Translations under genes and position numbers: made by a program
The notes under the pieces: generated by a model
Databases searched by the model: none
Seen by the model: the letters and a program-made list of their open reading frames with translations, nothing else
Told to the model about the DNA's origin: nothing
Part shown: positions 10,706 to 48,290 of the stretch, piece after piece
How positions within the stretch are numbered: the stretch's first letter is position 1
Layout of the letters: each line of letters begins with the position of its first letter
From: Sipunculus nudus
Taxonomy: Eukaryota > Annelida > Sipuncula > Golfingiida > Sipunculidae
Assembly (NCBI GenBank): GCA_026874595.1
Contig: CM049317.1
Span: 30,374,901-30,438,900, forward strand
Direction of reading: 5' to 3'
Length of the DNA: 64,000 bases

Positions 10706-11690
10706 AGCCCTCAGCCCTTAGGCTGATGGGCTATTGTTGTCACCCAAGCTGTCCGTCCGTCCGGCGTCCGTTAACTTTTACCTTGTGAGCGGGATATCTT
10801 GAAAAGGATTCACCGTCAGAATTTTATTTCCTCGGTAAAGATGTATATCGACAAAATCTCGGTCAAGTTCGAAGATGGGTGACCTTGACCTATTTTTCTA
10901 CATTTTAGAGCTGATTATAGAAAAACACTTAGATGCTTATTTCTCAGGAACCATTTGGTGGATTTTCACAAAACTTACTATGATTATTGGGAATGATAGT
11001 CTGTACCTGCTACACAAGTTTGGTGGCGCCACCTACAATTTCTGATTTTTAATGAATTTTTCTTGGATTTTTCAACTTTGGGCTTGTGAGCGGGATATCT
11101 CTAAAAGGATTCACCGTAGGAATTTTATTTTTTCGGTGAAGATGTGTATTGACAAAATCTCGGTCAAGTTCGAAGATGGGTGACCTTGACCTATTTTTCT
11201 ACGTTTTAGAGCTGATTATAGAAAAAACATTTAGAAGGATATTTCTCAGGAACCATTTGGTGGATTTTCACAATACTTACTATGATCATAGGGACTGATG
11301 GTCTGTAACTGCTGCACAAGTTTGGTGGCGCCACCTACAATTTCTGATTTTTAATGAATTTTTCTTGGATTTTTAAACTTTGGCCTTGTGAGCGGGATAT
11401 CTCTATAAGGATTCACAATAGGAATTTTATTTCTTTGGTGAAGATGTATATTGACAAAATGTCGGTCAAGTTCGAAGATGGGTGACCTTGACCTACTTTT
11501 CAAGGTCACAGAGCTTATAATAGAATAAAACTTAGAAGCTTATTTTTCAGGAAGCATTTGGTGGATTGTTATGAATTATGGTACATTACAAATTTTAACT
11601 GAGACGTATCGATACACATCCATGTGACAACAGATATTTAGTACTTGTTACTGTTACCACCTCTAAACACTGTTCTTTTGGCTGAGGGCT
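10706..11690. mobile_element. Non-autonomous element with terminal hairpin, CCGT run and three 300-bp direct repeats
   Basis: The left end is a hairpin, AGCCCTCAGCC-CTTA-GGCTGATGGGCT (10706-10732). It is followed by a TCCGTCCGTCCGGCGTCCG run (10750-10770) and then three consecutive direct repeats, each opening with CTTGTGAGCGGGATATCT (from 10782, 11093 and 11395) and containing GACCTTGACCTA and GGTGGCGCCACCTACAA. The third copy is truncated. The right end has GGCTGAGGGCT (11680-11690), the reverse complement of the outer hairpin arm. The ends are therefore defined by the sequence itself. There is no ORF, so the element is non-autonomous. Confidence 0.75.
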
Positions 11691-11805
11691 TTTGTCAGCT
11701 TCTGCTGATATTCTAGTGTATGTTTGTAAACACAGTCAACATGTGTCTGTTGACAATAACAAGGCCATGTGGCCTAAGGTCTAAGGAATTTTGGAAGGAA
11801 CCAAT

Positions 11806-11874
11806 TAATTTCAAAGAGAAGATGCTATTTTTTGTGTTAATTCAACATGCTTTATAGGTGATTAGGCCCTTTAA
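11806..11874 (+). repeat. Dispersed repeat (TTCAAAGAGA...GATTAGGCCCTTTAA), copy 1
   Basis: About 69 bp, shared with the complement of 50403-50472 and, for its 3' half, with 29374-29413. The shared core includes GTGTTAATTCAACATG, and all copies end in CCCTTTAA. A weaker relative may lie at 9936-9976. It is probably the tail of an interspersed repeat, SINE or MITE class, not resolved here. Confidence 0.65.
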
Positions 11875-13903
11875 AAAAGTGTACCAGTATTTCAACTCCT
11901 GATTTTATAGCAGTGTGGATTAAACATTGTATTTAACATGTCGGAACAAGTAATTCAAGAGACAGCTCATGATAATGATATGGAATCATAATATATACAG
12001 CTGTCATATGCATAATATTTCAGTTAGCCTTCCAAAAAATATTTCAAAAACAGGTTTAGACAGTTTTCACAAAACACAAGCAAAAAAAGAAACATAAACA
12101 TTTGGGAATCTAGAAAAAGGAATAAAAACACATGATTTCATGCATTTCCAATATCATTTTGACAAATAAGTTAAATCAGCAAGTCAAGAGAGCTTCATGC
12201 AGTCACTCCCATTAGAGCACAAGATATATAACATTTATACCATTATGGGTAAATTATTGGGTAAAGGATTACTCAAGGCCTCTGTTGTGTTGGTATTTAG
12301 ATCTGTGTGTTCATGAGCAGTGCCATGGTAGTTCAGCTTAACTATCAAGGGCCCTGAAGAGTGTAGCACTTAATGATATTGTCTCTTCTAGAGAGAGCCA
12401 CTGTAATTGATGCTCTGAATATTAAGTTAATGAGGTGTAATAGTCACCAGTGTTTTCAATCTTAATGAGATTCGGTGATAATTTGCTTGAAGGCATCAGT
12501 GTTCTTGAATGTAGATGACAATTTGATTACAGTGCTAATGCACAGAATGACCCAGTTATCAGCTGGCAGTCAGCACCATCTGGTGGGTATTTTGTGAAAC
12601 AAATTAGTCAAAGGCCATACATTCAAAATCCAGACCTTTATTAATTGACAAATATCTGATGCATAGGATATTAGTGTTTAGCTTTGAATGGAATAATATG
12701 ACTGTTTAGCTGTGAATGGGAAAATAATACAATCACCAGTTTGGAGCTTACATTTACAAGAATAATTCTAAATAAAGATTATTTCAGCATGAACATTAGA
12801 TGGGACAGCCTGCCAGCACTGCTCTCTGACTGTTAGGATTTCTTGTTTTCCAAATAAAAATAGACCTAAATGCAGGAATAAGGCTGTTATGCAATTTTTT
12901 TTTTGTAAAGAAGTTTTGGGGGAAAAAAATTGAAGTAAGAATTGTTTTCAATGAAATTCTCTTAGGTTATAATAATTACAAATATTAATAGTTTAAAGTA
13001 AATTGGTAATAGATACTGAAATGTGTTTGTCATTCATTTGTTTAATAATTTAATTTGATCATAAGTTGTCATGTATCCATTTGTTAAAAGAAATTGGTTA
13101 TAGACAATGAAATCTGTTTGTCTTATCTTTATTTGTTACAATAAATTAAATTGGTTATATAGATAATGAAATCTGTTCATTTGTTACTTTGAAAATTGAG
13201 AATAAATTATTTCTTTACTGGACTGCTCTGTATGAGCTCATACCTCCACCAACATATCTTTTGAGATCAAGCTTAATTTCCAAATTGAAAAAAAAAATAT
13301 TTCAGTCTTGTTAGTATCAAATTCCTCCACTAAGTGTTGGTTATCTTTTGTGGCTGGCTTGAGAATTTGTGAGGCTAATTTTACATGATTTTCACTTTTC
13401 TGTTTTTTTTGCAAGGGCTCCAGTTTTCACCATCTGCCATGCAGTAACCTACACATATAAAACCATTATGACATTATTGTTATTTTCAGTAAATCTAAAC
13501 ATATTGACTAGGACCCATGACAACGAGTAGAAATTCTTGTCCCCTGTAGCCAGATATTATGAAAGATCTGATGTTATTTGTTACGTCAATCTTTGATTTA
13601 CAAATAACATAAGATATGTGTTCTTATTTATAATATCAGTCTTTGGCTCTTTGACCTATAGCTACAGGCCTGTTCGCATGGATAAAATGAGGCCATATTA
13701 TAAAAGATCCTTGACCTATGTAGACTAGCTGTCTTTTTCATGAAGATTTCATTTTTGTGACAATTTCCCTTAATATTAAATCCCCACAAACTAAAAAAGT
13801 CAGCTATTGTATATCTAGATCCTTCCCTGAAACTGAAGGTGGGGCATGCAGTTACAGTGATATCACATATAATATATGATACAACACTGCTTTATAACAA
13901 CAG

Positions 13904-14034
13904 GTCCAGTGGAGGAATATGAGCTTCCATTTGAGGAGGAGATCGGGCAGCACCCGAGTCTTGAAGACATGCAGGAGTGTGTCGTCCAGAAGAAGCTGAG
14001 GCCACAGATAAAGGAACTGTGGCTCAAGCATTCG
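13904..14034 (+). CDS. ACVR2: Activin receptor type-2, kinase C-lobe exon
   Basis: 131 bp between AG at 13902-13903 and donor GTAAGA at 14035. The two leading bases complete the split Gly codon, then [20 protein letters not shown] and a further 23 residues ending [24 protein letters not shown] is nearly invariant among type II activin receptors. The exon ends on a codon boundary. Confidence 0.96.
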
Positions 14035-14644
14035 GTAAGAGTGCGCCGAAGGCCGTAGTTAAGTCATTAAATTCATAAAGATCAGTGGTTCAAGTATGCC
14101 TTAGGTGTTAGTCTCAAGAATAGGACATTGGTGAATGGTTGTCTTAAGTCACCTGGTTCACCCTGATACAGGCTAAATAATGTTAACCACCCCCCCCCCC
14201 CCCCCCCAACTTGTGATATTTTTAACCTCAGAGGTTTCCTATAATGGCTAATAACTTCTGTGTCATAATAACTTATTTTATTTCCATACAAATCCCTGCC
14301 TGTTCCTTAATCATGGAAGCATTAAAACTAAAATGCCTTTCAAGATTGTATTTATAATGTATGTGACGACAACTACAAACTGGAAAAGACTTAAATCAAT
14401 TTTTAAATTTTTGTGGCAAATGGTGTGATAAAGTAAAATTTGAAAAAGGATTGGGTGTTGCTTAACTATAAAGAGTGGGCAGTACACGCACATCAAATTT
14501 TACCTAGTTCCATCATGTCACTTAAAATTGATAGAAAAATTAAAACTGGAATAGCCTAATGATAATGATCATGCATTGTTTAAATCATATCAGATTATAA
14601 TGTCTTGATGAAAGACTGAATGTTTGTTGATTGTTTGAACACAG
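14035..14644 (+). other. ACVR2 intron 3 of the visible part
   Basis: Donor GTAAGA, acceptor TTGAACACAG. It contains an 18-base poly-C tract (14190-14207) and otherwise AT-rich sequence. Confidence 0.85.
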
Positions 14645-14851
14645 GGCTTGGCATCGTTGTGCAGCACCACTGAGGAATGCTGGGATCACGATGCAGAAGC
14701 TCGACTATCAGCAGGGTGTGTACAGGAGAGGATAGGCCACCTGCGACGCATCGCATCTAGCATGAACACTACCTCAGAAGCGCTCCAGGTGGTGGCGTTA
14801 CCGCCAGAGAGCACACCTGCCATAACCTCAACAATGGAATCATGTATTTAA
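14645..14851 (+). CDS. ACVR2: Activin receptor type-2, terminal coding exon and C-terminal tail
   Basis: 68 codons plus TAA. The exon starts with [20 protein letters not shown] (the Asp and Arg that close the kinase C-lobe), then [10 protein letters not shown], and then a less conserved Ser/Thr-rich tail ending ESCI. Vertebrate ACVR2 ends ESSL/ESSI, which binds PDZ proteins; the Ser-x-Ile end here keeps the class I PDZ-ligand pattern. It joins the previous exon in phase 0. Together the four exons encode about 398 residues containing a complete kinase domain. Confidence 0.96.
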
Positions 14852-16243
14852 ATCTCCTTAGCAGCAGGGTCAGTGCTGGAACAAGAATGTAATAGCCAGG
14901 GTAGGAGCTGGAAGAACACTAAGCATTGGCCAGTCTCATCCTGCCTGCAGATTGCTTTTTATCAGTAAACAATCAGTGAAAAAACATTTTGCGGAACAGC
15001 ACGTTTATCTGTTTAAGACCGTGCCACATCTGGTGGATCCCTACCTCATTTATACACTATTCAGATGATTTTTCAGCATTTGTATTCATTCAAATGAACA
15101 GGGCCTGAGTTTGCATAATTTGTTTATTTTTTATCCACATAAAGCAGTTAAAAGCAAAATTGTCATATCCACATACATACACTGGTACTTGTGTAACTTG
15201 TAACATCTTCATTGAGAAGATAAAAAAATATGGTTGTTTGTTTACATGCCATGGAACAATGATGTAGAAAAATCACAAATGTTAACTCTCTGTTATCAGA
15301 AAAAAATATGTCAAATTTGTCCATGTTCATTTGGTATATACTATTATATTGTGTTTTATTTTTTTCTGAGTGATAAACATCAGCATGGAAGCTGGCTCAA
15401 TCATGGTGTTAACATAATCAGATCAGTGGCCATTTCAAGGTTCTGTATGCAATTTCTGTTCAGTGAAGCCTGTCCAGTGTGGTATTTCTTTTGTTTGCTT
15501 TTATATAATGAGGGTTTCCTACCAAAGTCATTGGTATGCCTATCTGTTGAAATCTGATACATTTTCTTCATAAAACTTGCAAATTGGAACTCTAATACCC
15601 CTTTCACATGGCAGCTTGAAAATGGTGTAGAACTGTTTGTGTGAATTTAGTGTACATATGGCAGACTAAAGTATTTTTGTGCAAATCAACCCAACCCATT
15701 TTGAATCTTGCCAATATGATGATTTTAAAAGACATGCAGTACAAAACGAGTGAAACCATTTATGTAATGTATCATAACACTCAACTGTATTAGCTATGTA
15801 AATGAATAGACCTTGTCCAGTGAACAAGGATAACGGCACTATTACTGTGCAATTCTTTTTGAATCCGCTATACAGAGCATATTGGAACTGCATTTAGGAG
15901 TTTTCCTGATCAAAATGGTTTGGAAATGATTTCAGTGTGAAATGGGTATTAGTAACACATCAACTTCTGCTGACCTTGCGCAGTGTGTCAGGCCAAGGTA
16001 TTGTATATCAGTCGATGTAAAGACTGGTGTTCACTGAATGAGACTGTACATAACCACACATCGTTGAAATATTTTTTGTTTCTTTTGGGTGATGTTCATG
16101 AAGCGGGTGATGTTTATGATGCACACGTGAGCAAATGGAAGTTTCTTTTTATTAAACTGTTATTTGGAGAAAATTGTGTGGTACCATGCTGATGTATATA
16201 AACAGTAGATATACTTGTACAAAGAGTACTTTTATAAATCATT

Positions 16244-16245
<2 letters not shown>

Positions 16246-16309
<64 letters not shown>
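16246..16309. repeat. Compound (AC)n(AT)n microsatellite
   Basis: A pure AC run to about 16281 is followed by a pure AT run to about 16309. Confidence 0.98.
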
Positions 16310-16314
<5 letters not shown>

Positions 16315-16954
16315 CTGTACATATGACCTGTTTTGTCCCCTTTGGCATGCCAGTGTATTAGGAGATATAGAGTCTGGGGACAATATAAGATATATGTTAC
16401 CTGAAGCTATGATTCTTTTCACAGGGTTGAAGTCTGATCGCAGATAGAGCATGTTATGAAGTGTATTATATAATAACAATTCCTTCATGTGGATGTGGCA
16501 TAGATCTAACCTTCCTTTAGCCAGAGCATTTCATAGTGGAGCTGGTGTGGAATACAATTGGCCAAAATTAGGTAAATTCACCCCTGTCATATTTGACAAA
16601 ATCATCAGCAAATAAGAATAAATTTACCACTTTGACCTTTGCTCAAGTGTGATATATTTGTTTGCTTTTAAGTAAATTTTATAATCAAGTAAATGTTTTG
16701 GAATTTTATGATCAGAAGTAGTGATAGTTGTCTGAATAAGTAACTAATCATTGCAGAATACTACAGCCACAACTACATGAAAGGAATTGGTTTTGTTGCC
16801 ATAACATAATTCAACCTTAAAAACAGAATCATAGCTTACTTCCCATTCAAAAGGCCACAGCTTATCCTGTCATTTTCTGGGCATGGAGCAGCATAAAAAT
16901 CTGTGCACGGGTAAAATATTTTTAGCAGAAGCTGTATTTCATGCTTGAGATTTT

Positions 16955-17983: not shown

Positions 17984-18003
17984 CCCCCCCCCCCCCCCCC
18001 CCC
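17984..18003. repeat. Poly-C tract (20 bases)
   Basis: An uninterrupted C run in otherwise AT-rich sequence. A similar tract lies at 14190-14207 in the ACVR2 intron. Confidence 0.95.
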
Positions 18004-24427: not shown

Positions 24428-24467
24428 GATAATATATATATATATACACATATATATATATATAAAT
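24428..24467. repeat. AT-rich dinucleotide microsatellite
   Basis: Alternating TA interrupted once by CAC. Confidence 0.9.
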
Positions 24468-28200: not shown

Positions 28201-29700
28201 ATAGATGTGTGTCACCTAATGGATCCATAGTCTTTGTCAGAAATTAACACGGTCTATACCACCTTCTAGTTCTCTAGGACTTTGAAAGAGTACGCCTGAC
28301 TAGATTGTGCGACTGGGTAGATTTAAGCGTAATGTATGCTTCTGTTACATACTGACATACAGGCGGTTATTCCTGCCTTTTTGTATGTCACAATGTACAT
28401 TGGAATCTTGTTTAGGACTCAACCAGTTTATTTTAATTTCTAATACTCTTTGAATTTTCTCTGAGAATGGTATTCCAGCTTATCCTTTTATTTGATATAT
28501 CAAATATACACTGCATGTTACTTCTTTTTACAATGGGATTCCCGGTCCAAATTATTTGGTATTGTTCTGAACTTAACCGGATTACTACATACACTTTTGT
28601 ATATACCCATATATTTTTTTCGGGGTTCATCCAGTTCGACTCAATCTGGGTGGCTTACTGGGCCCCACCCTGTGGGGCTATTGTGGTACACGGAGACTAC
28701 TGAGTTTGTCCAGGGGACACTTGTTCAATGGTCACACAAAATATAACTCCAGTAGGCGATTGGATTCCTGTTTGTGTAGAACGACAGGTAAAACACTTAG
28801 ATGAGCCTACAGTGTATGGTATATAGGCCAGTCCTTCTATGACTGTGGATGTCGATTGGTGTGCCTACTTTTCATCAACCTTTGAGGGACACCTTTTTTC
28901 ACGCGCGCAAGTATCCACGCCCAATTTTACCATCTCACATGATTTATCATTTTATACCATCCGTCAGTCTGATTTACAGCGACGGGTCTTTGTCCATCGT
29001 CATTCCGTCCGTAATAAAAAAGCCATTTCTGGTAATCCGTCATTAATTCCTAGTGAGCCCAGATGGTCAGTGGAAAGTCCATGGCTTCGTCCGTCTTTAT
29101 CCTGCTTGACCTTTGGAAAGTAGTTCGGCAATGTCCATAACGTCCTTGTTTGGGCACGGATGAATCTCTCCATGGACAGGCCATGACGTTACACTGCTTG
29201 TCCGTGCATGTCACTCCTACTTCCGGCAGAGGTTCTTTCTAGTTGATCGCCAGCGCCGTTGCACTGACGTGCAGTTTCGAAGGAGGGTTGCTCTTAGAGC
29301 AATTGTGCTCGGCCGATCGTGAGAATCCATTACACTTCCTTGAATGGTTCCAAGGCCGTCCAAAACCATGGACGGTTAATTCAACATGTTGTATAGGTGA
29401 TTAGGCCCTTTAATACACTGACAGCCTTCAGACTCGAACGGGTTGAGAGAAAGTGGCGGCCTAGCAGAAAAAAAAATTAATATCTGCAAATACCAGTTCC
29501 CGAGAGTTTGTGTAGGACCTAAGAATTTATTATCATCAATTACTCTGGACTGACTTGCAAAATTATGTGCATTGTGGTGCATCTCCAACACGTATGCAGA
29601 ACGGTCTTTAATACCATAGAGGGCCGGTAGATGTCATCACCAAAAGAGCAGATATCGTAAGGCAAACGAAACGGCACTTTCCTTCCTTCAGTGCCCTTAT
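25300..29700. other. GC- and CpG-richer block with no recognisable gene
   Basis: Sampled lines here are about 45% GC, for example 28 of 60 bases at 26761-26820. AT-rich introns nearby are much lower, about 13 of 60 at 12961-13020. CpG dinucleotides are frequent and the A/T homopolymers common elsewhere are scarce. Short open frames occur on both strands (for example 25751-26044(-) and 28839-29123(+)), but none shows a domain, a splice context or a codon pattern I recognise. One copy of a dispersed repeat lies at its right side (29374-29413). Confidence 0.55.
29374..29413 (+). repeat. Dispersed repeat (GATTAGGCCCTTTAA), partial copy 2
   Basis: GTTAATTCAACATG followed by GTATAGGTGATTAGGCCC and TTTAA matches the 3' half of the repeat at 11806-11874. 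Confidence 0.7.
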
Positions 29701-32631: not shown

Positions 32632-32635
<4 letters not shown>

Positions 32636-32697: not shown

Positions 32698-32702
<5 letters not shown>

Positions 32703-32759
32703 AATATTTATAAGTCTGGTTCTTTCTTTTTTCAAGATTCATTTATATCAACCCTAAGT

Positions 32760-33060: not shown

Positions 33061-33355
33061 TATATATACATTGACGCAGATCATTCCCGTAGTCAGAAAT
33101 ATACATGGCGAAGATCTCAATACATGAAGATAAGGACATTTTCCACGTTATGACACATGCTGGACATTTGCACACAAAAAAAGGCGAAATGTCCCATTCT
33201 TTTTCTAACTTGACTGTTTATGCAGGAGAGAAAACTATATATCGGAATTCTTTCATGAAAAAGAGAGGGAAAATAGTGCTGCTGAATTGGCGTAATTTTC
33301 AGGAAATCCTCAAAAAGAGTGACTCAATATTAACAAGCAAATTCGTGGAATTAAT

Positions 33356-34517
33356 GTCCCCCGGTTAGGGCTCTTGTTGTTTTTCATGCTTGATAACGGA
33401 TGGACAGACAGAGTGACAGACAGACAGAAACTAGAAACTTCACAACAAATCCCAACCAAAGTTAGGATGAGAGCAATCACTGATGAAAATTTGAATGAAA
33501 TCGGATAATATCTAGGAAATTAATTGCAGGGAAACGAAAACCTGATAGACTGACAGGCAGAGTGACAGAAGCCAGACGCTTCAAAACAAATCCAAACCAA
33601 GGTATGCATGAGAGCAATCACTGACCAAAATTTAAATGAAATCGGATAAAATTTAGGAAAGTTATCGCACGGAAAGAAAAACCTGACAGACAGACAAAGT
33701 GACAGACAGACAGACAGAAGCCAGACACTCCAAAACCAATCAGAATCAAGGTAAGCATGAGAGCAGTCACTGACCCAAATTTGTATGTAATCGGATAATA
33801 TTTAGGAAAGTTATCCCATGGAATCGAAAACCTGACAGACTAACAGACAAAGTGACAGACAGACAGAGAGAAACCAGACACTCAAAAACCAATCCCAACC
33901 AAGGTGAGCATGAGAGTAATCACTGACCCAAATTTGAATGAAACGGAATAATATTTAGGAAAGTTATCGCACGGAAAGAAAAACCTGACAGACGGAAACA
34001 AATTGACAGACTCGCAGACAGAGTGACAGACAGACAGATCGAGAGAAGCCAGACACTCCAAAACAAAGGTAAGCATGAGAGCAGTCACTGACCAAAATTT
34101 GAATGTAATCGGATAATATTTAGGAAAATTATTGCATGGAAACGAAAACCTGACACACTGACAAAGTTGCAGACAGACAGAGAGAAGTCAGACACTCCTA
34201 AACGAATTCTAACCAAGGTAATCATGAAAGTAATCACTGACCCAAATTTGAATGAAATCGGATAATATTTAGGACAGTTATCGCACGGAAACGAAAAAAC
34301 CTGACGGACGGACAGACAAATTGACCGAGAGAAGCCAGACACTCAAAAACCAATCCCAACCAAGGTATGCATGAGAGCAATCACTAACCCAAATTTGAAT
34401 GAAATCGGATAATATTTAGGAAAGTTATCGCACGGAAACCAAACAAAATGACGGACGGACGGACAGACAGACAGACAAACCCAAATCAATGTCCCTCGCA
34501 TCCGTGGAGCGGGGGAC
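33356..34517. mobile_element. Minisatellite element: seven 147-bp direct repeats, GACA/GACG runs and terminal hairpin
   Basis: Seven successive units (around 33441, 33588, 33736, 33889, 34060, 34203 and 34350) contain GCATGAGAGCAATCACTGAC, AATTTGAATGAAATCGGATA, TTTAGGAAAGTTATCGCA and GACAGACAGACAG-type runs. The period is about 147 bp, with some length variation. The right end is a hairpin, GTCCCTCGC-ATCCGTGGA-GCGGGGGAC (34491-34517). The left end has GTCCCCCGG (33356-33364), which matches the outer hairpin arm in inverted sense. There is no coding capacity. The short frame 33105-33368 ends exactly at the left boundary but shows no recognisable domain. Confidence 0.75.
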
Positions 34518-37500
34518 AAAAAAGAAGGGTGATTTAGCAGGACTGAATAAGGCCGGCTCTACCAATTTCTACGAGACTATACAAGTGGGTAGAACATGGA
34601 TAAGATTTTGACAAGAATTTTTATAACGGGGTAGATCACGTAAAATTGTTTTCCCTTTTCGTAGGAAGGTGCGCTACAATATGAAATCATCGTTTACTAA
34701 TGGTACAATCTTGCTTCATTTAACACAAACACGAGGCAGGCGTTTTCACATCATTCAGAGATTATACTAACATAACCCAGTTTCGTTTTCTAAAAATTTG
34801 TATCTGGCTACTTGTTATTCCGAAATTAGACGTTCACATACAGCTTAAATTCAACCAACAAAAATAAGGAGACTGGATGTGGCATTGTGTTTATCTTTAT
34901 TGACAATATTTGCATATAACGTGGGCCATTCACAGCTCCAATTCAATAGTTGATTTGCCCATTTGAATATTACACAATTTCCTCTGAACAAGTTACGTTC
35001 GTGCGGATGTCAAAGGGACAAACGGCAGATCAAACAAATACAATATCGATTTCTTCTGCTGCAGGTTATACTATCAGCGTGGTTAACTTTGAGCTCTTAC
35101 TTTCGCCCCGACGGTAGAGAACAATGTGCACAGCTGACACTTCAATGGGCGACACGTTTTTGAAAGCATGCATTATCGTATTACGGACATGGCCCTTTTA
35201 AATTTCTATCTGTTGTCTGTCAAAAATTACTAGAAATTTGGCCGGAAAATCGTGAATGCAATCTCCTTCCGCTTCCTGATCACATTCACACTACGTGGTC
35301 ATTTTCTTTTACAAGATGATGCTTTATTCCAAATAATCCAAACACATATTAACTAACGTTTTACAGTTCTTCGCTGCTGCGCATTTGTCCTTATATTTCC
35401 GCTGGTGTTATTGATTAAACAATTTCTACTTCAGCTGTACACACATCACACACATCTGTATCGTCAACAAATATGATTACTGTACACGAATTACACATTT
35501 CCCTAGTCAACAAACACCTTTAACCAAGCAGTTATAAAAACTCCATTAAAAACTTACAACAAATTTCTTTTCGTAACTTTTTTCTGTGTACATACAATAT
35601 ATTATACTCCTTGCTTTTAAATATTTGCATATATCCTTAATGTGCCGTGGATACCTAGTTAGAACTGAACCCAGCGGGTGATGCTAATGAAATATAAACT
35701 AAAAACATTCGGAATTCCTTGCCCACATTCGAATAAAGGAGAGAGGGGCTACGATTTGACCTAAAATCCTGCAGGTGGCGCTAAACTAGTTCAGACTAAA
35801 TCCAGAAGAGGACACTACACTACATGAGGAATGACTTGTACACTAGATCGAACCATGACCTTATTGTTAATGAGAACGGTGGTGACTACATCTACTATAG
35901 TATGAGATATCATATTAGTATTATGAACACGAATTAGTATATACAGGATACTCCAGTATTTCTTTGATACAATGATTAAAGACTTTTTTCTATTAAAATT
36001 ATTTAAGTCATGATAAAGTACACAATACCCATGTACCTTTATTTTGTACTGGACCTAGAGGGTTTGTTTCTTCTATGAACATATCGCGATTTCTTCACTC
36101 TTTATTTATATCAATGTTTGGATTGAAACTTGAGAAGCACAGCTACAGTGGACACATCACATAATGATTGCATGTCGCCTATCATACCCTACATCTTATT
36201 ATATATTTTTATTTAACTAGTTACTACTTTGAAATTTAAATTTTAACATTGTTAAGGCACCCGGTTTAATTTTATTATTTGAGTCCTTATTATTTTGGAC
36301 AATGAACAAAAGAATGCAACAATAACAGGCACACTTTAAACTGGTGTGATGTAAAGGTCATGTGACATGAAGAAAAGAAAGCGTTAGTAAATGTGTACAT
36401 GTATTTGGTAACATTTCCTATTTTGACGCATTACAAAGAATCTACTGGTGCCTGTTAGAGAACAGCTATTGCACAATTGCGTATGCTTCAGTGTAAGAAA
36501 ATATAACACCATAATCATCCGTGGACTTAACATATTGCCGTTAGTTCTTCATTTTTTTATAATCTGCCTTGAAACATTATTTTTTCATAACAACTGAAGA
36601 AAAACTTCTTCAAATGACAGATCATAAAATGATAGCTTATTTAATATAATTTTATCACTAATAAAGCTAAAAGAGAGAAACAAAGGCATCATTTTATTGC
36701 ACTATAGCATAGGCGTGTGTAATCCGTTCTGGAGGCCAACAATGCAAAAATGCAACCACTTCCTCTGCTGGATTTATTTAGTTTCTTATTTATTTAGTTT
36801 CAATAAAGTCACTGCGTGTAATGTTTCTCTCATAACCAAATATGACACAGGAAATACCATATATTACATAAATAAATTTACATAAATGTTAAAATTCTAT
36901 TTTTCAGTGTGGATTGTTAAACTGGTTGAATATTTTTACATAAACAGAGAAAATGTATAATAAAACTTCTGTTCCACATTTGATTCTAAAGCCTGATATG
37001 TTTTAAACTAGTGGAAATTTGAGCTAAAATAAGTTTCTGTGGCAAATAACTACAAATAATTTTGGATAAATAGTAGGTTTTGGTAAGAATATCTCATTTC
37101 CATGTTCTGAAGTTCTATATATATGTATTTTTCATAAAATGAATACATCCAACATGGATTGTTTTCCTCTAAAATTCTTCACTTTCAGATTTGTCAGCTA
37201 CATGCACAAAATTAAAATCTACAATTCCTTCAACAAGAAAGTCCTCCATGAAATCATGCAAAATACATCATATTTCCAAGGCATTAGGATCAACAAATAT
37301 ACCACACTGTGTTCACTACCATTAAAAACATCAACAAATGACAGCATGAAAAGCAGATTTCAAACAATTTACCATTCCCGATAAGCAAATTAATATGCAC
37401 AATCTTCATTTGGTTGATACAAATTCAACAGTAGATCCTGGTGAGGACCATACAATTTGGCCATCCCCAATTAGCATGTAGACATGTGAACCACTGGGGA

Positions 37501-39280: not shown

Positions 39281-39905
39281 CTGGAAAGAAGAAGCAAAAT
39301 CAGAAGCTTATAATGGAAATAACTTTTTTTAGTGTAACATTCATATATGATGGTGTGGAAATAGAAAGTGAGCATTTTTAAAACCGAAATGTTACTTGAA
39401 AAAGACTAAGGTGTAAAATGTCTGAGAATGGACAAACTGGTCACAAACTGTGATCTGTAATGCCTATCACATGACAAGCTTGATCAACCTATGCTGAATT
39501 TCTTAAACTTCAAATCTACATATAGAGAAATTTATAATTCACTCACATTCTAAAAGTGTGTTACAAAAGAGAGCATTTTCCTATACACCGCATTTTGAAT
39601 AAATAAATGTTATAAAGTACAAATCATCAGTAAGGCAAGCAAAGACTAAGAATTTGTTAATATACAAAACTTTGCAGAACATGATATCAAAAACAGTGTA
39701 ATATGCCATGAATATTTCAGAATTTTCAGTAGTGTGAAAAATCCTAAACATATGCTTTTCTCTAATATAATACCTTTGTAACTCAATTTTAATCCTATTC
39801 TCAATACCATAAAAAGTATGTGCAAGTCAATTAACCAGGTATAAGTTGAGGGGGCATTTATCACATTGTTACAACCCATGTTTACACTGTACACAATGCA
39901 CTGAC

Positions 39906-40049
39906 CTTCTGTTTTGTAGCGTACAAAAGTAGTTTTTCTCTCCATCATGGAGTCAACTGCCAGCTTTTCACAGTATTTAGACGTGATAATAGCAATGGTT
40001 GGGCGTCCACCTTCAGTATGCACTGGCATCTGCTTCACGATCTTTACCT
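39906..40049 (-). CDS. Nucleoside-phosphorylase-superfamily protein, exon 7 of the visible part (domain start)
   Basis: 144 bp, acceptor CTTGCAG, donor GTCAGT. It encodes VKIVKQMPVHTEGGRPTIAI followed by ITSKYCEKLAVDSMMERKTT and FVRYKTEG. RPTIAIITSKYCEKLAVDSM is the opening beta-strand and helix of the phosphorylase fold (compare the I..I.T....E..AV pattern of eukaryotic members). The 8.3-kb intron upstream of it is filled with mobile elements. Confidence 0.9.
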
Positions 40050-40392
40050 CTGCAAGTTATTTTTTATTTGTGACATAGAATTCATCTGATAGATTTTTTT
40101 TATCAAATTTATATTTTTACTAAAAATATATTTGAAAATTTTGAAAGTGTTTTGAACTTTCACCTTTGTTGACTGAAGCAGCTGTTTACAAGTGAAAGTG
40201 CACATTAATCCTATTTTATTTCTATATGACTGGCTGTATTACACAATATTTGTAAGGATGACTATATTGGCATTTAACAATAGCTGCAAAAGAACAATTT
40301 AATATATAACATACATAGGTTACATAATATAAAATTTATCTAAAATAATAATGTATTAATTTTAAATCAAAAGGCCTCTCCTGATAAAATAT

Positions 40393-42995
40393 CAACAAGG
40401 GACCTATGGGTCACGACGCTCAGCTGTTATATATGATAAAAAAATATTATTTAGAAATGAGGCACATGCTGGTTTTGTGTGGTAATAAATATAAGCTGTA
40501 TTATGAGTTGTTGTTGTTTAGCTTATGTATGATTTTGATAGTACCTTTGGAGATAGGGGAGAGGATTGATTTCATTTATTTTATTAACAAATGGAGTACT
40601 ATTGTCACACAGATTTTGACTAGGCCATATAACTTATTAGCAGAACATATAATATAAGAGTTTAACTATTTATTAAAAAAATACAAATATTGTCCCAAAT
40701 ATAATTTTTATTAAAAATAATAAGAGAATCATATGATTTTTTAAAATGAAATATAACTGATATGATTATTAAAATACTATTAAAGAATATATTCATGAAT
40801 GCATTCATGAATACATTTTGAAAGTATTTGCACGAGTATTCATATATTTTCATTTTTACCTGAATTCCCATTCTTTATGCAAGAAATTTTATAATGGAGT
40901 ACAAAATCATATTCGTATTTAAATACAATTACAAAGTATTTGCACCATGTCTGGAATTTATTCAGTTTTCACCAAACAATGATGTTGAGAATCCAGAATA
41001 TACAAAATTCACACATTTAAATAATGATCATAAGTAACTGGTTTTATGGCTTTTATTTATATTAAAAAATAACTGTAAAAAATTCATTTTGGACTAATTT
41101 CACATCAGTGTACACACTAGACACAGCAGGAATCTAGATTAATATTATCAACTGCATCTTTGTCTAATTTCCTTCATATGATCCCTAATGATTAGTAATG
41201 AATAATATGATTCACTTCTTTATCATTAAAATTGAACTGAAAAATGCCATAGGTGACTGCATGGTGTTATTTGGAATATATGACATTCTACCCATTGATA
41301 CAAGAGTCTTAAATCATCAGTAACTGCAAGTTAATTTCCTGTTATTATAAACTAACAAATTCCTTTTCTATTTTTCTTTAATTTGTTATTAAAAACCAAT
41401 AAAAATTTATTAATTTATTGTTTTTTGTTATGTTCTTGGTTAAAACTACTAGATGAGTTGGGTTGGACACCTGGATCAACTGTGGCTTGCCATAAGCTGC
41501 CTGGATTCCATGTATGCCTCGCCTCAAGCGTGCATAATTTGATGATGGGTCAACAAGGTCAACATACAGGTGACTCAAGAGGGGCTGGAGAGAGCCAAAG
41601 TCTGACAGGGTCTCATAAAAAACATTAATAAAAGCTACAATTTTTGGCCAATTTCTTTCAGCTTTCTAAACTAAAAAGCTGAAATGCTTATGTGTGCATA
41701 ATATGAAAATTATATCAACAGTGCTCATGGGAAACAAACGTGCCATGGTCACAGTTGGGCAAAATTTAAGGTACTAATTTTATATTTATACTAAATAAAA
41801 TTTGAAAAATTCAGAACTAATTTTGGGTATTCAATTGAACCTTGATTAAATAATGTTACATCCCTGACAAAAAAATCTCTAGCTTCAGCAATGCTCTTGT
41901 TAAGGGAGTAAATATATTTCTTTATTTTTTACAAAGTGCATTATGTTTGGGCCCATAACTTAAAACAATTACACAATACTGACATCATTCTGGCATGTGC
42001 ATAGAGAATGAAAAATATGTATATTATTTATGATTAAAGTCAGATCAGTGGTTTTGATATTAGGCAGTCTTGAAGTGTAACAATGGGTTTTTAATGGAAA
42101 AATGATGTTTTTTATTAATATCTCGAATGTCCTAGTGACCAAATTCTTGGCATGGTAGGGCATTTTGGAGACATCTAACTGTATGCCGAATTTAAGGAAC
42201 TTAGAGCTGAAGCTGGGGAGCTGAGCTCTTGCAAACTGCATAACACTAGCTTGATGTAAACAATGTGTTACATGGTGCTTGAAAACTTGATAAAAATCTA
42301 CAGTTTTTGATCAACTGGTTTCAAATTTTTGGTGTTTACAGTTGAAATGCTAACAAAAACATGCTGTGAAAATTAAATCCACAGTACTTACAGGAAAAAA
42401 ACGAGCCATGGTCAAAGTTGGGCAAAATTTAAGGTACCAATTTTTTATTTTTATTAATATTTTTAAAAATTTAAAAGATTTTCATCTAATTTTGGGTATA
42501 CAAGTTAATTTTGATTAATTAAAGTTATATTACTGGAAAAAAGGTCCATAGCATTAACATTTTTTGTGTTAAGTGATCAAATATCTTTTCTGATTTTTTA
42601 CAAAATGCATTATGTTTGGGCCCATAACTTTTTTAAATTAAATAATACAGACATAGTTTCTGGCATGTACATAGGAACTATATAGAGGAATATTTATGGA
42701 AAATATGAGGTAAAACAGATGAGTGGTTTTGAAATTAGACAGTCCTGAAGTGTGAAAATAGGTTTTTAATAAAAAATTGAGGTTTTTCCTTAATTTCTCA
42801 AAGGAACGAAGTTGCAAACACCCAGTTTTCGGCTTGGTAGGAGATCTTGGGGACATCTAACATTATGCCGAATTTTGGATTCCTAGGTCTTACGGTTTCA
42901 AAACGTGCCACATCTACGGACGGACGGACGGACGGACGGACGGACGGACGGATGGACAGACGGACGGACGACGGACAATGGACCACGACTATTTA
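40393..42995 (+). mobile_element. 2.6-kb non-autonomous element (family A), copy 1, right end altered
   Basis: Begins CAAGGGACCTATGGGTCACG and contains an 850-bp AT-rich left part with ATTCATGAATGCATTCATGA. Two diverged direct repeats of about 650 bp follow (from about 41630 and 42290; anchor GCATTATGTTTGGGCCCATA at 41938 and 42607), and then a CGGACGGA run (42918-42971). The terminal hairpin seen in the other copies is missing: after GGACCACGACTAT the sequence passes to TTACAA and then copy 2. No ORF exceeds about 90 codons. Confidence 0.85.
42918..42971. repeat. (CGGA)n microsatellite inside family A copy 1
   Basis: About ten CGGA units with GGATGGACAGACGG interruptions. Homologous runs at 46390-46434 and 48177-48241 differ in length among copies. 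Confidence 0.95.
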
Positions 42996-43851
42996 CAACA
43001 AGGGACCTATGGGTCACGGCGCTCAGCTGTTATATATGATTCAAAAATATGATTTAGGAATGAGGCATATGCTGGTTTGGTGTGGTAATAAATATAAGCT
43101 TTATTATGAGTTGTTGGTGTTTAGCTTATGTATGATTATGATATTATCTTTGGAGACAGGGAAGAGGATTGATTTCATTTATTTTATTAACAAATGGAGT
43201 ACTATTGTCACACAGATTTTGACTTGGCCATATAACTTATAAGCAGATCATATAATATAAGAGTTTAACTATTTATTAAAAAAAATTACAAATATTGTCC
43301 CAAATATAATTTTTATTAAAAATAATAAGAGAATCTTATGATTTTTTAAAATGAAATATAACTGAAATGATTATTAAAATAATATTAAAGAAAATATTCA
43401 TGAATGCATTCATGAATACATTTTGAAAGTATTTACACTGGTATTCATATACTTTCATTTTTACCTGAATTCCAATTCTTTATGCAAGACATTTTATAAT
43501 GGAGTACATATTCATATTCATATTTAAATACAATTGCAAAGTTTTCCCACCATTACTGGCATTTATTCAGTTTTCACCAAACAATTATGTTGAGAATCCA
43601 GAATATACAAAATTCACACATTTAAATTATGATCAAAAGTACCTGGTTTGATGGCTTTTATTTATATTAAAAAAAAAAATGTAATATATTCATTTTGGAC
43701 TAATTTCACATCAATGTACACACTAGACACAGTAGGAATCTAGATTAATAATATCAACTGCATCTTTGTCTATCATTAATTTCCTTCATATGATCCCTAA
43801 TGATTAGTAATGAATAATATGATTTACTTTTTTATCATTAAAACTGAACTG
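42996..43851 (+). mobile_element. Family A element, copy 2, left fragment (split by insertion of copy 3)
   Basis: Matches the first 850 bp of copy 1 almost base for base and stops at AAACTGAACTGAA. The missing continuation (AAATACCATAGGTGACTGCA onward) resumes at 46485 after copy 3. The two pieces are therefore one element interrupted by a later insertion. Confidence 0.88.
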
Positions 43852-46484
43852 AACAAGGGACCTATGGGTCACGACGCTCAGCTGTTATATATGATGATAA
43901 AAAAATATTATTTAGAAATGAGGCACATGCTGGTTTTGTGTGGTAATAAATATAAGCTGTATTATGAGTTGTTGTTGTTTAGCTTATGTATGATTTTGAT
44001 AGTACCTTTGGAGACAGGGGAGAGGATTGATTTCATTTATTTTATTAACAAATGGAGTACTATTGTCACACAGATTTTGACTTGGCCATATAACTTATAA
44101 GCAGAACATATAATATAAGAGTTTAACTATTTATTAAAAAAAATACAAATATTGTCCCAAATATAATTTTTATTAAAAATAATAAGAGAATCATATGATT
44201 TTTTAAAATGAAATATAACTGATATGATTATTAAAATAATATTAAAGAATATATTCATGAATGCATTCATGAATACATTTTGAAAGTATTTGCACGACTA
44301 TTCATATACTTTCATTTTTACCTGAATTCCCATTCTTTATGCAAGAAATTTTATAATGGAGTACATAATCATATTCGTATTTAAATACAATTACAAAGTA
44401 TTTGCACCATGTCTGGAATTTATTCAGTTTTCACCAAACAATGATGTTGAGAATCCAGAATATACAAAATTCACACATTTAAATAATGATCATAAGTACC
44501 TGGTTTTATGGCTTTTATTTATATTAAAAAATAACTGTAAAAAATTCATTTTGGACTAATTTCACATCAATGTACACACTAGACACAGCAGGAATCTAGA
44601 TTAATTTTATCAATTGCATCTTTGTCTATCATTAATTTCCTTCATATGATCCCTAATGATTAGTAATGAATAATATGATTTACTTTTTTATCATTAAAAT
44701 TGAACTGAAAAATGCCATAGGTAACTGCATGGTGTTATTTGGAATATGTGACATTCTACCCATTGATACAAGATTCTTATATCATCAGTAACTGCAAGTT
44801 AATTTCCTGTTATTATAAACTAACAAATTCCTTTTCTATTTTTCTTTAATTTGTTATTAAAAACCAATAAAAATTTATTAATTTATTGTTTATTGTTATG
44901 TTGTTAGTTAAAACTACTAGATGAGTTGGGTTGGACACCTGGATCAACTGTGGCTTGCCATAAGCTGCCTGGATTCCATGTATGCCTCGCCTCAAGCGTG
45001 CATAATTTGATGAGAGGTCAACAAGGTCAACATACAGGTGACTCAAGAGGGGCTGGAGAGAGCCAAAGTCTGACAGGGTCTCATAAAAAACATTAATAAA
45101 AGCTACAATTTTTGGCCAATTTCTTTCAGCTTACTAAACTAAAAAGCTGAAATCCTTATGTGTGCATGATATGAAAATTATATCAACAGTGCTCACGGAA
45201 AACAAACGTGCCATGGTCACAGTTGGGCAAAATTTAAGGTACTAATTTTATATTTATACTAATAACTTATAAAATTTGAAAAATTCAGAACTAATTTTGG
45301 GTATTCAATTGAATCTTGATTAAATATTGTTACATCCCTGACAAAAAAATCTCTAGCTTTAGCAATGCTCTTGTTAAGGGAGTAAATATATTTCTTGATT
45401 TTTTACAAAGTGCATTATGTTTGGGCCCATAACTTAAAACAATTACGCAATACTGACATCATTCTGGCATGTGCATAGAGAATGAAAAATATGTATATTA
45501 TTTATGATTAAAGTCAGATCAGTGGTTTTGATATTAGGCAGTATTGAAGTGTAACAATGGGTTTTTAACGGAAAAATGAAGTTTTTCATTAATATCTTGA
45601 ATGTCCTAGTGACCAAATTCTTGGCATGGTAGGGCATTTTGGAGACATCTAACTGTATGCCGAATTTAAGGAACTTAGAGCTGAAGTTGGGAAGCTGAGC
45701 TCTTGCAAACTGCATAACACTAGCTTGATGTAAACAATATGTTACATGGTGCTTGAAAACTTGATTAAAATCTACAGTTTTTGATCAACTGGTTTCAAAA
45801 TTTTGGTGTTAACAGTTGAAATGCTAACAAAAACATGCTGTGAAAATTAAATCCACAGTACTTACAGGAAAAAAACGTGCCATGGTCAAAGTTGGGTAAA
45901 ATTTAAGGTACTGATTTTTTATTTTTATTAATATTTTAAAAAATTTAAAAGATTTTCATCTAATTTTGGGTATACAATTTAATTTTGATTAATTCAAGTT
46001 ATATTACTGGAAAAAAGGTCCATAGCTTTAACATTTTTTGTGTTAAGTGATCAAATATCTTTTCTGATTTTTTACAAAATGCATTATGTTTTGGCCCATA
46101 ACTTTTTTAAATTAAATAATACAGACATAATTTCTGACATGTACATAGGAACTATATAGAGGAATATTTATGGTAAATATGAGGTAAAACAGATGAGTGG
46201 TTTTGATATTAGGCAGTCCTGAAGTGTGAAAATAGGTTTTTAATAAAAAATTGAGGTTTTTCCTTAATTTCTCAATGGAACGAAGTTGCAAACACCCAGT
46301 TTTCGGCTTGGTAGGAGATCTTGGGGACATCTAACATTATGCCGAATTTTGGATTCCTAGGTCTTACGGTTTCAAAACGTGCCACATCTACGGACGGACG
46401 GACGGACGGACGGACGGACAGACGGACGGACGACGGACAATGGACCACGACTATAGCTCAGATGACTTATAGTCAGCTGAGCTA
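43852..46484 (+). mobile_element. Family A element, copy 3, complete and nested inside copy 2/4
   Basis: Runs from CAAGGGACCTATGGGTCACG to the terminal hairpin TAGCTCAGATGAC-TTATA-GTCAGCTGAGCTA (46454-46484), 2.63 kb. It has the same internal 650-bp duplication and CGGACGGA run (46390-46434) as copy 1. Because it interrupts another copy, both ends are exact to within a few A/C bases. Near the left end CGCTCAGCTG is the inverted complement of the outer hairpin arm CAGCTGAGC. There is no transposase-like ORF. Confidence 0.88.
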
Positions 46485-48290
46485 AAAATACCATAGGTGA
46501 CTGCATGGTGTTATTTGGAGTACGTGACATTCTATCCATCGATACAAGATTCTTTTATCATCAGTAACTGCAAGTTGATTTCCTGTTATTATAAACTAAC
46601 AAATTCTTCTTTATTTTTCTTTAATTTGTTATTAAAAAACAATAAAAATTTATTAATTTATTGTTAATTGTTATGTTGTTGGTTAAAACTACTAGATGAG
46701 TTGGGTTGGACACCTGGATCAACTGTGGCTGGCCATAAGCTGCCTACCTGCAACAGTGTATGGCTCGCCTCAAGCATGCATAATTTGCTGAAAGTTCAAC
46801 AAGGTCAACATACAGGTGACTCAAGAGGGGCTGGAGAGAGTTAAGGTCTGACATGGTCTCATAAAAACATTAATAAAAGCTATAATTTTTGGCCAATTTC
46901 TTTCAGCTTTCTAAACTAAAAAGCTGAAATCCTTGTGTGCATGATATGAAAATTATATCAACCGTGCTCACAGGAAACAAATGTGCCATGGTCAAAGTTG
47001 GGCAAAATTTAAGGTACTAATTTTATATTTATACTAATAACATATAAAATTTGAAAAATTCAGGACTAATTTGGGGTATTCAATTGAATCTTGATTAAAT
47101 AATGTTACATCCCTGGCAAAAAAACTCTAGCTTCAGCAATCCCCTTGTTAAGGGAGTAAATATATTTCTTGATTTTTTACATAGTGCATTATGTTTGGGC
47201 CCATAACTTAAAACAATTACGCAATACTGACATCATTTCTGGCATATGCATAGAGAATGTATAGAAAAATATGTATATTTTATATGATTAAAGTCACATC
47301 AGTGGTTTTGATATAAGGCAGTCTTGAAGTGTAACAATGGGTTTTTAATGGAAAAATGAAACTTTTATTAATATCTCGAAGGTATTAAGTCCTAGTGACC
47401 AAATTCTTGGCATGGTAGGGAATTTTGGAGACATCTAATTGTATGCCAAATTTTAGGAACTGAGAGCTGAAGCTGGGGAGCTGAGCTCTTGCAAACTGCA
47501 TAACACTAGCTTGATGTAAACAATTTGTTACATGGTGCTTGAAAACTTGAATAAAATCTACAGTTTTTGATCAACTGGTTTCAAATTTTTGGTGTTAACA
47601 GACAAAATGCTAACAAAAACATGCTGAGAAAATTAAATCCACAGTACTTACAGTAAAAAAACGTGCCATGGTCAAAGTTGGGCAAAATTGAAGGTACCAA
47701 TTTTTTATTTTTGTTAATATTTTAAAAAATTTAAAAGATTTTGATCTAATTTTGGGTATACAATTTAATTTTGATAAATTAAAGTTATATTACTGGAAAA
47801 AAAGTCCATAGCTTTAACAAGTTTTGTGTTAAGTGATCAAATATCTTTCCTGATTTTTTACAAAATGCATTATGTTTGGGCCTATAACTTTTTTAAATTA
47901 TATAATACAGACATAATTTCTGGCATGTACATAGGAACTATATAGAAGAATATTTATGGTAAATATGAGGGAAAACAGATGAGTGGTTTTGATATTAGGC
48001 AGTGCTGAAGTGTGAAAATAGGTTTTTAATAAAAAATTGAGGTTTTTCCTTAATTTCTCAAAGGAACGAAGTCGCAAAGACCCAGTTTTCGGCTTGGTAG
48101 GAGATCTTGGGGACATCTAACATTATGCTGAATTTTGGATTCCTAGGTCTTACGGTTTCAAAACGTGCCACATCTACGGACGGACGGACGGACGGACGGA
48201 CGGACGGACGGACGGACGGACGGACAGACGGACGGACGACGGACAATGGACCACGACTATAGCTCAGATGACTTATAGTCAGCTGAGCTA
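46485..48290 (+). mobile_element. Family A element, right fragment of the split copy 2/4
   Basis: Continues copy 2 from the base where it breaks off (CCATAGGTGACTGCATGGTG), carries both 650-bp repeats and a longer CGGACGGA run (48177-48241), and ends in the same 31-base hairpin (48260-48290). It is followed by AAAATTTACAAAATTACATA, unique intron sequence. Confidence 0.88.
48177..48241. repeat. (CGGA)n microsatellite inside family A right fragment
   Basis: The longest of the three CGGA runs, at the same place relative to the element's right end. Confidence 0.95.

What the first reader, a model, noticed from the sequence alone, without database searches (positions are those of the whole stretch)
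10706..48290. Four unrelated repeat families share one architecture: terminal hairpin, tetranucleotide run, tandem body
Family A (40393-48290), the 10706-11690 element, the 33356-34517 array and the GTATAAAAA family have no obvious sequence in common. Yet each has a hairpin at one end, a CGGA/CCGT/GACA-type run within tens of bases of it, and a body of direct repeats (650, 300, 147 and 145 bp). In the first three, the other end carries a short motif complementary to the outer hairpin arm: CGCTCAGCTG/CAGCTGAGC, AGCCCTCAGCC/GGCTGAGGGCT and GTCCCCCG/GCGGGGGAC. Subterminal inverted repeats plus a terminal hairpin are known for Helitron-related Helentrons. The conserved place of the microsatellite suggests it matters for, or results from, the same transposition process.
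Basis: partly seen in the sequence, partly recalled or inferred. Interest (0 to 1): 0.75.

Follow-up and report, generated by a model that had tools for sequence, protein, structure and literature searches.

The report
T-run-inserting rolling-circle transposons (HINE type)
Several repeat families in this animal genome share one end structure because they look like non-coding jumping genes copied by the same rolling-circle machinery, a known kind; that neighbouring copies tend to point the same way is the less expected part.

Summary
On the element strand, families A, B and C share one order: T-run, hairpin made by a subterminal repeat, (GTCY)n run, tandem body, complementary 3' repeat, short palindrome (weak in C), CT(A/T)G, host T's. 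The GTATAAAAA family (D) fits in outline, but its window copies are too decayed to prove hairpin or 3' repeat. Genome-wide copies of A, B and C keep these ends. The 8-kb A region is one A element nested in an older A copy at a TTTTT, beside a third copy. Empty sites show no duplication beyond one or two extra T's (two in 6 of 9). The genome encodes Helentron-type Rep proteins, but none could be linked to A-D. Verdict: new members of a known kind. Not found in two literature searches: A-D neighbours of A and B copies are co-oriented (22 rows to 2), with flanks T-rich on the element strand, beyond what T-run availability in the window predicts.

The parts
48261..48294 (-). Family A, outer element: T5 (48290-48294) and 5' subTIR hairpin
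   Evidence: exact match; same end in genome copies
46489..48260 (-). Outer A element, 5' portion: (GTCY)n run (48178-48244) and body (Y4)
42999..43853 (-). Outer A element, 3' portion (X2): 3' subTIR 43020-43029, palindrome 43004-43015, CTTG 42999-43002
   Evidence: same raised divergence as Y4 (42 of 847 and 77 of 1729 singleton differences); coordinates
43854..46488 (-). Inner A element (element 3), nested in the outer one at a TTTTT: T5 + hairpin 46455-46488, (GTCY)n 46392-46438, 3' subTIR 43875-43884, palindrome 43859-43870, CTTG 43854-43857
   Evidence: hairpin z -5.4
40396..42990 (-). Third A element (element 1), lacking the 5' hairpin: (GTCY)n 42918-42976, 3' subTIR 40417-40426, palindrome 40401-40412, CTTG 40396-40399
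10701..10732 (+). Family B: T5 and 5' subTIR hairpin
   Evidence: z -6.0
10751..10769 (+). Family B (GTCY)n run
10773..11567 (+). Family B tandem body, 302 bp period
11680..11716 (+). Family B 3' end: subTIR 11680-11690, palindrome 11695-11708, CTAG 11713-11716
   Evidence: palindrome z -3.6
34491..34523 (-). Family C: T6 and 5' subTIR hairpin
   Evidence: z -3.1
34450..34476 (-). Family C (GTCT/GTCC)n run
33403..34477 (-). Family C tandem body, 149 bp x 7.2; GTCT runs recur inside the monomers
33334..33363 (-). Family C 3' end: subTIR 33356-33363, weak palindrome 33340-33352, CTTG 33334-33337
   Evidence: palindrome not better than shuffles (z -0.85)
3652..4187 (+). Family D copy 1 (T6, degenerate 5' end, GTCC/GTCT run, palindrome 4166-4181, TCTTG)
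53330..53645 (-). Family D copy 2 (T5, GTTTGTCTG run; 3' end not recognised)
59776..60288 (-). Family D copy 3 (T5, palindrome 59782-59796; body repeats about 143 bp apart)
62334..62516 (-). Family D copy 4 (T5, GTCC/GTCT run, short)

Best explanation
A, B, C and, less surely, D are non-autonomous Helentrons (HINEs, the Helitron2 kind) moved in trans by Rep/helicase proteins encoded elsewhere in the genome. SHOWN: each of A-C starts with a hairpin formed by its 5' subterminal repeat right after a T-run, carries (GTCY)n and a tandem body, and ends with the complementary repeat, a short palindrome (weak in C) and CT(A/T)G followed by T's; copies sit at T-runs; empty sites of A and B show no duplication other than one or two extra T's; A elements insert into T-runs of other A elements. 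INFERRED: a Helentron-type Rep cuts at the 5' end, a helicase peels off one strand, the 3' palindrome (perhaps helped by pairing of 5' and 3' repeats, as Bao and Jurka proposed) stops the copy, and the single-stranded or circular copy joins a T-run. The families look alike because one machinery reads the ends, not because the bodies are related. Each insertion leaves a T-run at its 5' side, which allows later head-to-tail insertions.
For: B: 30 fetched copies all show ATATTCTAG at the 3' end, read by eye; of 27 that the script parsed, 25 have T5 or more at the 5' end and 27 at least one T after CTAG. A: 31 full-length copies among 40 scored; 30 of 31 match from the T-run (query 8 or earlier) to CTTGTT; of 10 fetched, 9 have T5 or more and 9 CTTGTT. 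C: 17 of 28 rows, besides the window's own, that reach the 3' end stop at query 1192-1194, one to three bases after CTTG; letters of two further copies read CTTG then T's. Empty sites: 9 read for T count, 6 gain exactly two T's, 2 gain one, 1 blurred. No duplication: abutting repeats of 3 nt or more in 1 of 36 elements against 0.8 expected. Of 50 (GTCY)n arrays in the fetched DNA (loci chosen mostly for A and B) 35 have T-run plus hairpin just upstream, 0 of 50 in the mirrored control. 143 Helitron_like_N matches in the genome (150 of 195 candidates scored), open frames up to 2426 aa; among the 30 loci fetched, 28 have HxH and 27 of these the Helentron-type GSPH.
Against: No autonomous element with A-D ends was found: A-D had no match in the 32 Rep loci L031-L062, a weak test because most of these hold only the Rep domain with 1.5 kb each side, and the one Rep element followed outward ran past 13.6 kb with no end seen. 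C's 3' palindrome is weak (z -0.85) and A's modest (z -1.8). D's hairpin is not better than chance in two copies tested. Ten of 24 further (GTCY)n arrays had no element end that I could recognise (by eye). Rep activity, circles or single-stranded intermediates were not tested.
Confidence: 0.88

Rival explanations
1. They are MITEs: terminal inverted repeats moved by a cut-and-paste transposase (the older reading of 'pearl' and DINE-1 elements).
For: Inverted repeats near both ends; no long open frame inside A-C in the list of frames of 150 aa or more.
Against: Repeats are asymmetric (at the 5' end, but about 20-26 nt from the 3' end), the 5' copy forms a hairpin of its own, and no target duplication is seen in 36 elements; empty sites show only extra T's. 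A TT duplication cannot be told from T's carried by the element.
Confidence: 0.04
2. They are retroposed SINE-like elements: the A-run seen on the other strand (GGGCTAAAAA, GAGCTAAAAA) is a poly-A tail.
For: On the opposite strand each element ends in an A-run.
Against: Both ends are exact in nearly all copies looked at, empty sites already hold the T/A-run and gain one or two bases, not a tail, and there are no target duplications.
Confidence: 0.02
3. Shared architecture is coincidence: four tandem-repeat loci with chance hairpins, the (GTCY)n run being only a common microsatellite of this genome.
For: ACGG-type runs are the commonest perfect tetranucleotide in the fetched DNA (59 of 82, but loci were chosen mostly for A and B). 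Ten of 24 further arrays lack a recognisable element end. Family D's hairpin is not significant.
Against: Fold z-scores for A-C, complementary far-end motifs, exact ends in dozens of unlinked copies, and two further 5' ends (E, F) with the same order found by scanning for the run.
Confidence: 0.02

Closest known systems
Cg_HINE elements of the Pacific oyster (Vojvoda Zeljko et al. 2020, PMC7492417; abstract, first part of Results, two Results sub-sections, first part of Discussion and passages seen)
   Same: 5' subTIR, inverted repeat complementary to it, 4-nt microsatellite (GTCY, GTCC or GTCK in several), satellite-like central repeats, 3' subTIR, palindrome; T-rich target, no target duplication; no autonomous partner linked.
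   Different: Here A is 2.6 kb with 669-bp halves, against 138-181 bp monomers there. The word 'nested' does not occur in that text; it says the elements lie in both orientations and I saw nothing on neighbour orientation.
Helitron2 (Bao and Jurka 2013, PMC3627910; passages seen)
   Same: 5' hairpin formed by the 5' asymmetric terminal inverted repeat, 3' repeat just upstream of a 3' hairpin, insertion after TTTT.
   Different: Termini of A-C end CT(A/T)G; 5'-truncated copies with 7-19 bp duplications, as in Chlamydomonas, were not looked for systematically.
DINE-1 of Drosophila and HINE of mites (Yang and Barbash 2008, PMC2374699, passages; Thomas et al. 2014, PMC4067079, Results parts 1-2 and passages)
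   Different: No sequence comparison was made; partners of some DINE-1 families are known, here none.
FoHeli (Chellapan et al. 2016, PMC5148889; abstract and two sections seen)
   Same: Asymmetric inverted repeats, nested self-insertion, composites.
   Different: There several 5' ends with one 3' end; here two loci suggest one 5' end with two 3' ends (C6 and C8).
Pearl elements of bivalves (recalled, and as cited in PMC7492417)
   Same: Short central repeats between conserved ends in bivalves.
   Different: Not compared by sequence here.

Membership tests
HINE / Helitron2 (non-autonomous Helentron) | 5' subterminal repeat forming a hairpin near the 5' terminus | tested here: met
   A, B, C: z -5.4, -6.0, -3.1. 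D: not met in the two window copies tested.
HINE / Helitron2 (non-autonomous Helentron) | Complementary 3' subterminal repeat upstream of a 3' palindrome | tested here: met
   A, B, C repeats exact. Palindrome clear in B (z -3.6), modest in A (-1.8), weak in C (-0.85). D inconclusive.
HINE / Helitron2 (non-autonomous Helentron) | Insertion in T-runs / TT without target duplication | tested here: met
   A and B; 6 of 9 empty sites +2 T, which a TT duplication or T's carried by the element explain equally. C: T-runs at the ends only; D: window copies only.
HINE / Helitron2 (non-autonomous Helentron) | Microsatellite then tandem repeats in the body | tested here: met
   (GTCY)n on the element strand in A-C, at the 5' ends called E and F, partly D; bodies
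HINE / Helitron2 (non-autonomous Helentron) | Autonomous Helentron (Rep/helicase/endonuclease) with the same ends | tested here: inconclusive
   Helentron-type Rep motif present; element ends not reached; no A-D match in L031-L062
Canonical Helitron (Helitron1) | 5' TC, 3' CTRR, insertion between A and T, no 5' hairpin | tested here: not met
   5' hairpin present; 5' end is T-run plus AG or GT. 3' CTAG of B alone fits CTRR.
MITE (TIR and target duplication) | Fixed-length target duplication at terminal repeats | tested here: not met
   1 of 36 A and B elements with abutting repeat of 3 nt or more, 0.8 expected; a TT duplication is not excluded
SINE / LINE | Poly-A tail added on insertion, variable duplications | tested here: not met
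   empty sites of A and B hold the run already

The most novel reading that the evidence does not exclude
Insertion of these rolling-circle elements is strand-directed over kilobases: the copy enters T-runs on one particular strand of a region, perhaps the strand left single during transcription or replication, so that different families point the same way and their orientation records local strand exposure. Evidence: 22 neighbour rows co-oriented to 2 (about 19 to 2 after merging the two flanks of one host and adding two neighbours; 13 to 2 without nested hosts), flanks T-rich on the element strand in 31 of 39 copies, while T5/A5 runs of the window are co-stranded in only 1677 of 3292 pairs and their flanks show no skew.
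Probability: 0.3. Interest if true: 0.65.

Novelty: new member of a known kind. Interest (0 to 1): 0.4.

Why it matters
It says what the odd repeats are and shows, in one genome, families with different bodies (A, B, C, and 5' ends E and F) presenting the same end signals, so the signals rather than the bodies are likely what the machinery reads. A family nested in itself gives empty sites for measuring the insertion footprint. If the orientation effect holds genome-wide, Helentron copies would report which strand was open at insertion, and would link these eukaryotic elements to single-strand insertion of bacterial HUH transposons (that link is recalled, not tested).

Tried and rejected
Considered and rejected: one long array for family A (the three X and three Y parts fall into an older outer copy and two younger ones); MITE and SINE readings. 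Tried without result: autonomous partner by following the L034 Rep element outward: it still matched its relative L033 (99.7% alike over the Rep locus) at the edge, no end seen. The 5' break between L058 and L060 at about 464-468 turned out to be a family E element inserted in the Rep region, not an element end. Pfam on ten exon-like frames: seven gave no family, one (14639-14848) only a match below the cut-off, one (10147-10356) a kinase match at E 2e-6 but below the curated cut-off, one (2037-2867) a clear kinase. The family D genome search did not complete, so D's genome-wide ends are unknown. A scan for less decayed D ends in the fetched DNA found only two window copies. An 8-nt repeat (TTGTAAAT) on both sides of the outer A element was seen by eye; I treat it as probably chance.
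Full report
WHAT IS THERE. The window is G000:C12:30374901-30438900 of a 1.43-Gb genome in 153 contigs. The hairpins of A, B and C fold better than dinucleotide shuffles (z -5.4, -6.0, -3.1), those of the two D copies tested do not. The far-end motifs of A, B and C are exact complements of the outer arm (9, 11, 8 nt), which shuffles of the 3' end reach in 2, 0 and 1 of 500; wrong pairings of families score 3 to 7.

POLARITY AND COMPLETE ANATOMY. Read on the strand where the hairpin comes first, A (minus strand), B (plus) and C (minus) have the same order: T-run; hairpin; (GTCY)n; tandem body; complementary repeat; palindrome; CTTG (A, C) or CTAG (B); T's.

GENOME-WIDE ENDS. B: 41 matches, 40 of 2719 first-look candidates scored, 40 matches over nearly the whole query. 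Thirty were fetched (one is the window's); all show ATATTCTAG at the 3' end, by eye. My script parsed 27 (L008, L026, L027 dropped for changed ends): 25 of 27 have five or more T's before the element, 27 of 27 at least one T after it. A: 40 of 7949 candidates scored, 31 full-length at 95-100%, 30 of 31 matching from the T-run to CTTGTT. Of ten fetched (one is the window's), 9 have T5 or more (L069 has TTTTTATT) and 9 have CTTGTT (L068 changed). C: 40 of 3563 candidates scored, 72 rows; the larger matches are mostly 78-83% identical, so the family is older. Besides the window's own, 28 rows reach query 1190 or beyond; 17 of them stop at 1192-1194, just after CTTG, the rest at 1190 or 1196-1200. 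Letters of two further copies show CTTG followed by T's; a third (C8:31498943) was cut too short to show it. D could not be searched.

THE 8-KB A REGION. The three 3' parts (X1-X3) and three 5' parts (Y1, Y3, Y4) split by divergence: X2 and Y4 carry 42 of 847 and 77 of 1729 singleton differences, the others 3 and 10, and 19 and 23. Y4 plus X2 is one older element; element 3 (43854-46488) is inserted in it at a TTTTT; element 1 (40396-42990) lies next to them and lacks the 5' hairpin. The uninterrupted site is visible in elements 1 and 3: CATTTTTCAG became T5-element-TTCAG.

INSERTION FOOTPRINT. I found a paralogous uninterrupted counterpart for twelve sites. Nine were read for T number: the window, L066, L070, C13:46693263, L008 and L028 gain exactly two T's; C4:83620681 and L005 gain one; L068 is blurred by a change in the terminal tetranucleotide. 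L014, L022 and L030 are too diverged to score (T counts and L008 by eye; counterparts are other copies, so their T number may differ from the true target). At C13 the 5' side has only TT and four host T's follow the element, so the two extra T's can be taken as carried by the element or as a TT duplication. Among 36 A and B elements (27 B, 9 A; 4 of 40 dropped for changed ends) 1 has an abutting direct repeat of 3 nt or more once T-runs are removed, against 0.8 expected by re-pairing flanks; the longest shared word within 25 nt is 4.67 on average against 4.43 (54 of 500 re-pairings as high).

SELF-NESTING AND COMPOSITES. Of the 31 full-length A copies, 6 have A sequence on both sides, joined at a T-run of A (positions 246, 553, 920, 1784, 2591-2597, and a run of only four at 1222), all in the same direction as the host copy. 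Two more (C6:57458650, C8:32540755) have A only on the 3' side, both from position about 2355; that their 5' flanks are not A rests listing no such piece and on my reading of the letters. If every first-look candidate were a full copy, A would be about 1.5% of the genome and about 0.5 of 31 would be expected in A by chance; this is a rough bound of mine. The C6 and C8 arrangement, one 5' end with two 3' ends and different 5' flanks, suggests a copy that ran past its own 3' end to that of its host; only about 90 letters of the second part were read, so this is a lead.

SHARED SIGNALS. In 353,423 bases (window and fetched loci, 81 sequences, mostly chosen because they hold A or B) 35 of 50 (GTCY)n arrays have a T-run and hairpin just upstream and 0 of 50 in the mirrored control; by their first letters 18 are B, 15 A, one C, one F. 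A looser scan without A and B gave 24 arrays. By eye, 10 are at a T-run end (D copies 1 and 4, C, three of a family E, one of a family F, and three A or B copies that slipped through the filter), 4 are inside C monomers and 10 have no end that I recognise. E starts TTTTT-ATGCCCCCGCC (L058, L013, L028), F starts TTTTT-ATTGCTTGCCGG (L023). The 5' flank of the C6 copy (L077) ends in what looks like a family E 3' end: complementary repeat, palindrome, CTAG, then T5. E and F were not read beyond that, their bodies were not compared, and E and C share CCCCCGC in their repeats.

MACHINERY. PF14214 (Helitron_like_N) gives 143 matches (150 of 195 candidates scored), some in open frames of 1882 to 2426 aa. 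Of the 30 best loci fetched, 28 have an HxH motif and 27 of these read GSPH, the S that Thomas et al. give as typical for Helentrons; L057 reads GWPH; L031 and L032 show no such motif. A-D have no match in L031-L062, but most of these loci hold only 1.5 kb around the Rep domain. The L034 element still matched its relative at the edge of 13.6 kb, so its ends, and any link to A-D, are unknown.

ORIENTATION. Around 40 A and B copies (the window's two included), 16 loci have A-D matches in their flanks: 22 rows in the same and 2 in the opposite direction. Merging the two flanks of a host, and adding two neighbours seen, gives about 19 to 2; leaving out nested hosts 13 to 2 (by eye). Flanks of 39 copies (A-D masked) are T-rich on the element strand in 31 (B 25 of 30, A 6 of 9; Wilcoxon 8e-6); they hold 388 T5 against 336 A5 runs; G skew is not clearly biased (24 of 39, p 0.07). 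Control from the window: 353 T5/A5 runs have a mean flank skew of 0.0007 (46.7% positive), and runs within 1.5 kb of each other are co-stranded in 1677 of 3292 pairs; binomial tests of 19:2 and 13:2 give 0.00015 and 0.005, observed against control skew 4e-5. In the window 6 of 7 element sites (the A region counted once) have T-rich flanks on the element strand, C does not. D copy 1 lies on the plus strand between kinase exons at 2037-2867 and 10147-10356, and B on the plus strand just downstream (the second exon's match is below Pfam's cut-off); the A region lies between minus-strand open frames at 48314-48469 and 39649-40056 that Pfam does not name. Cautions: the control comes from one window and its runs overlap in flanks, unmasked HINE families may add to the skew, the merging is mine, the loci are the best-scoring copies only, and the oyster paper reports both orientations genome-wide.

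COMPARISON WITH WHAT IS KNOWN. The anatomy is that of Helitron2/Helentron non-autonomous elements: Bao and Jurka 2013 (passages), Thomas et al. 2014 (Results parts 1-2 and passages), Cg_HINE (abstract, Results part 1, insertion sites, grouping, Discussion part 1, passages), DINE-1 with a GTCY-rich run (passages), FoHeli with nesting and composites (abstract and two sections). The oyster authors could not link their elements to autonomous ones either. I did not see neighbour co-orientation of Helentrons in the listings of two searches or in the parts read; that is weak evidence of absence in print. The CT(A/T)G terminus of A, B, C and perhaps E was not mentioned for HINEs in the parts I read; Thomas et al. 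give CTAG for a proto-Helentron of Phytophthora.

VERDICT. Ordinary in kind and well supported for A, B and C: new members of the HINE group, with the A region a nest of self-insertions; D is probable. The role of (GTCY)n stays open although its place recurs here and, in print, in flies and oyster. The orientation effect is the part worth following.

Noticed in passing
window 52612-52940: A 329-bp palindromic element with 77-nt terminal arms 84% complementary and relatives at 53887-54156 and 61313-61559; looks like a MITE.
   Followed up: no
window 1441-1641 and 57838-58056: A dispersed repeat, 76% alike in opposite orientation over about 220 bp.
   Followed up: no
window 11814-11874, 29375-29413, 50404-50460: A short interspersed repeat at 89-95% identity in three places.
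   Followed up: no
window 2856-3146 and 3486-3604: A 43-bp minisatellite just downstream of a kinase exon.
   Followed up: no
L058 about 380-470 (antisense): A family E element inserted in the N-terminal part of a Helentron-type Rep region.
   Followed up: partly
C8:4368977, C4:75102430, C12:68372371, C9:18753622, C1:104308218: Five family A relatives begin at the same internal position (query 1061-1062): a 5'-shortened subfamily or a chimera.
   Followed up: no
L066 about 1004; window about 42990: Two A copies lack the first 30-35 nt, the hairpin; in L066 the shortened copy still abuts TTTTT.
   Followed up: partly
C1:106503450 and C1:106506891 (L072): Two A copies in the same direction about 826 bp apart.
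   Followed up: no
L034, L061, L062: Rep element with imperfect repeats downstream of its 2235-aa frame (seen by eye), so the coding element may carry repeats too.
   Followed up: no
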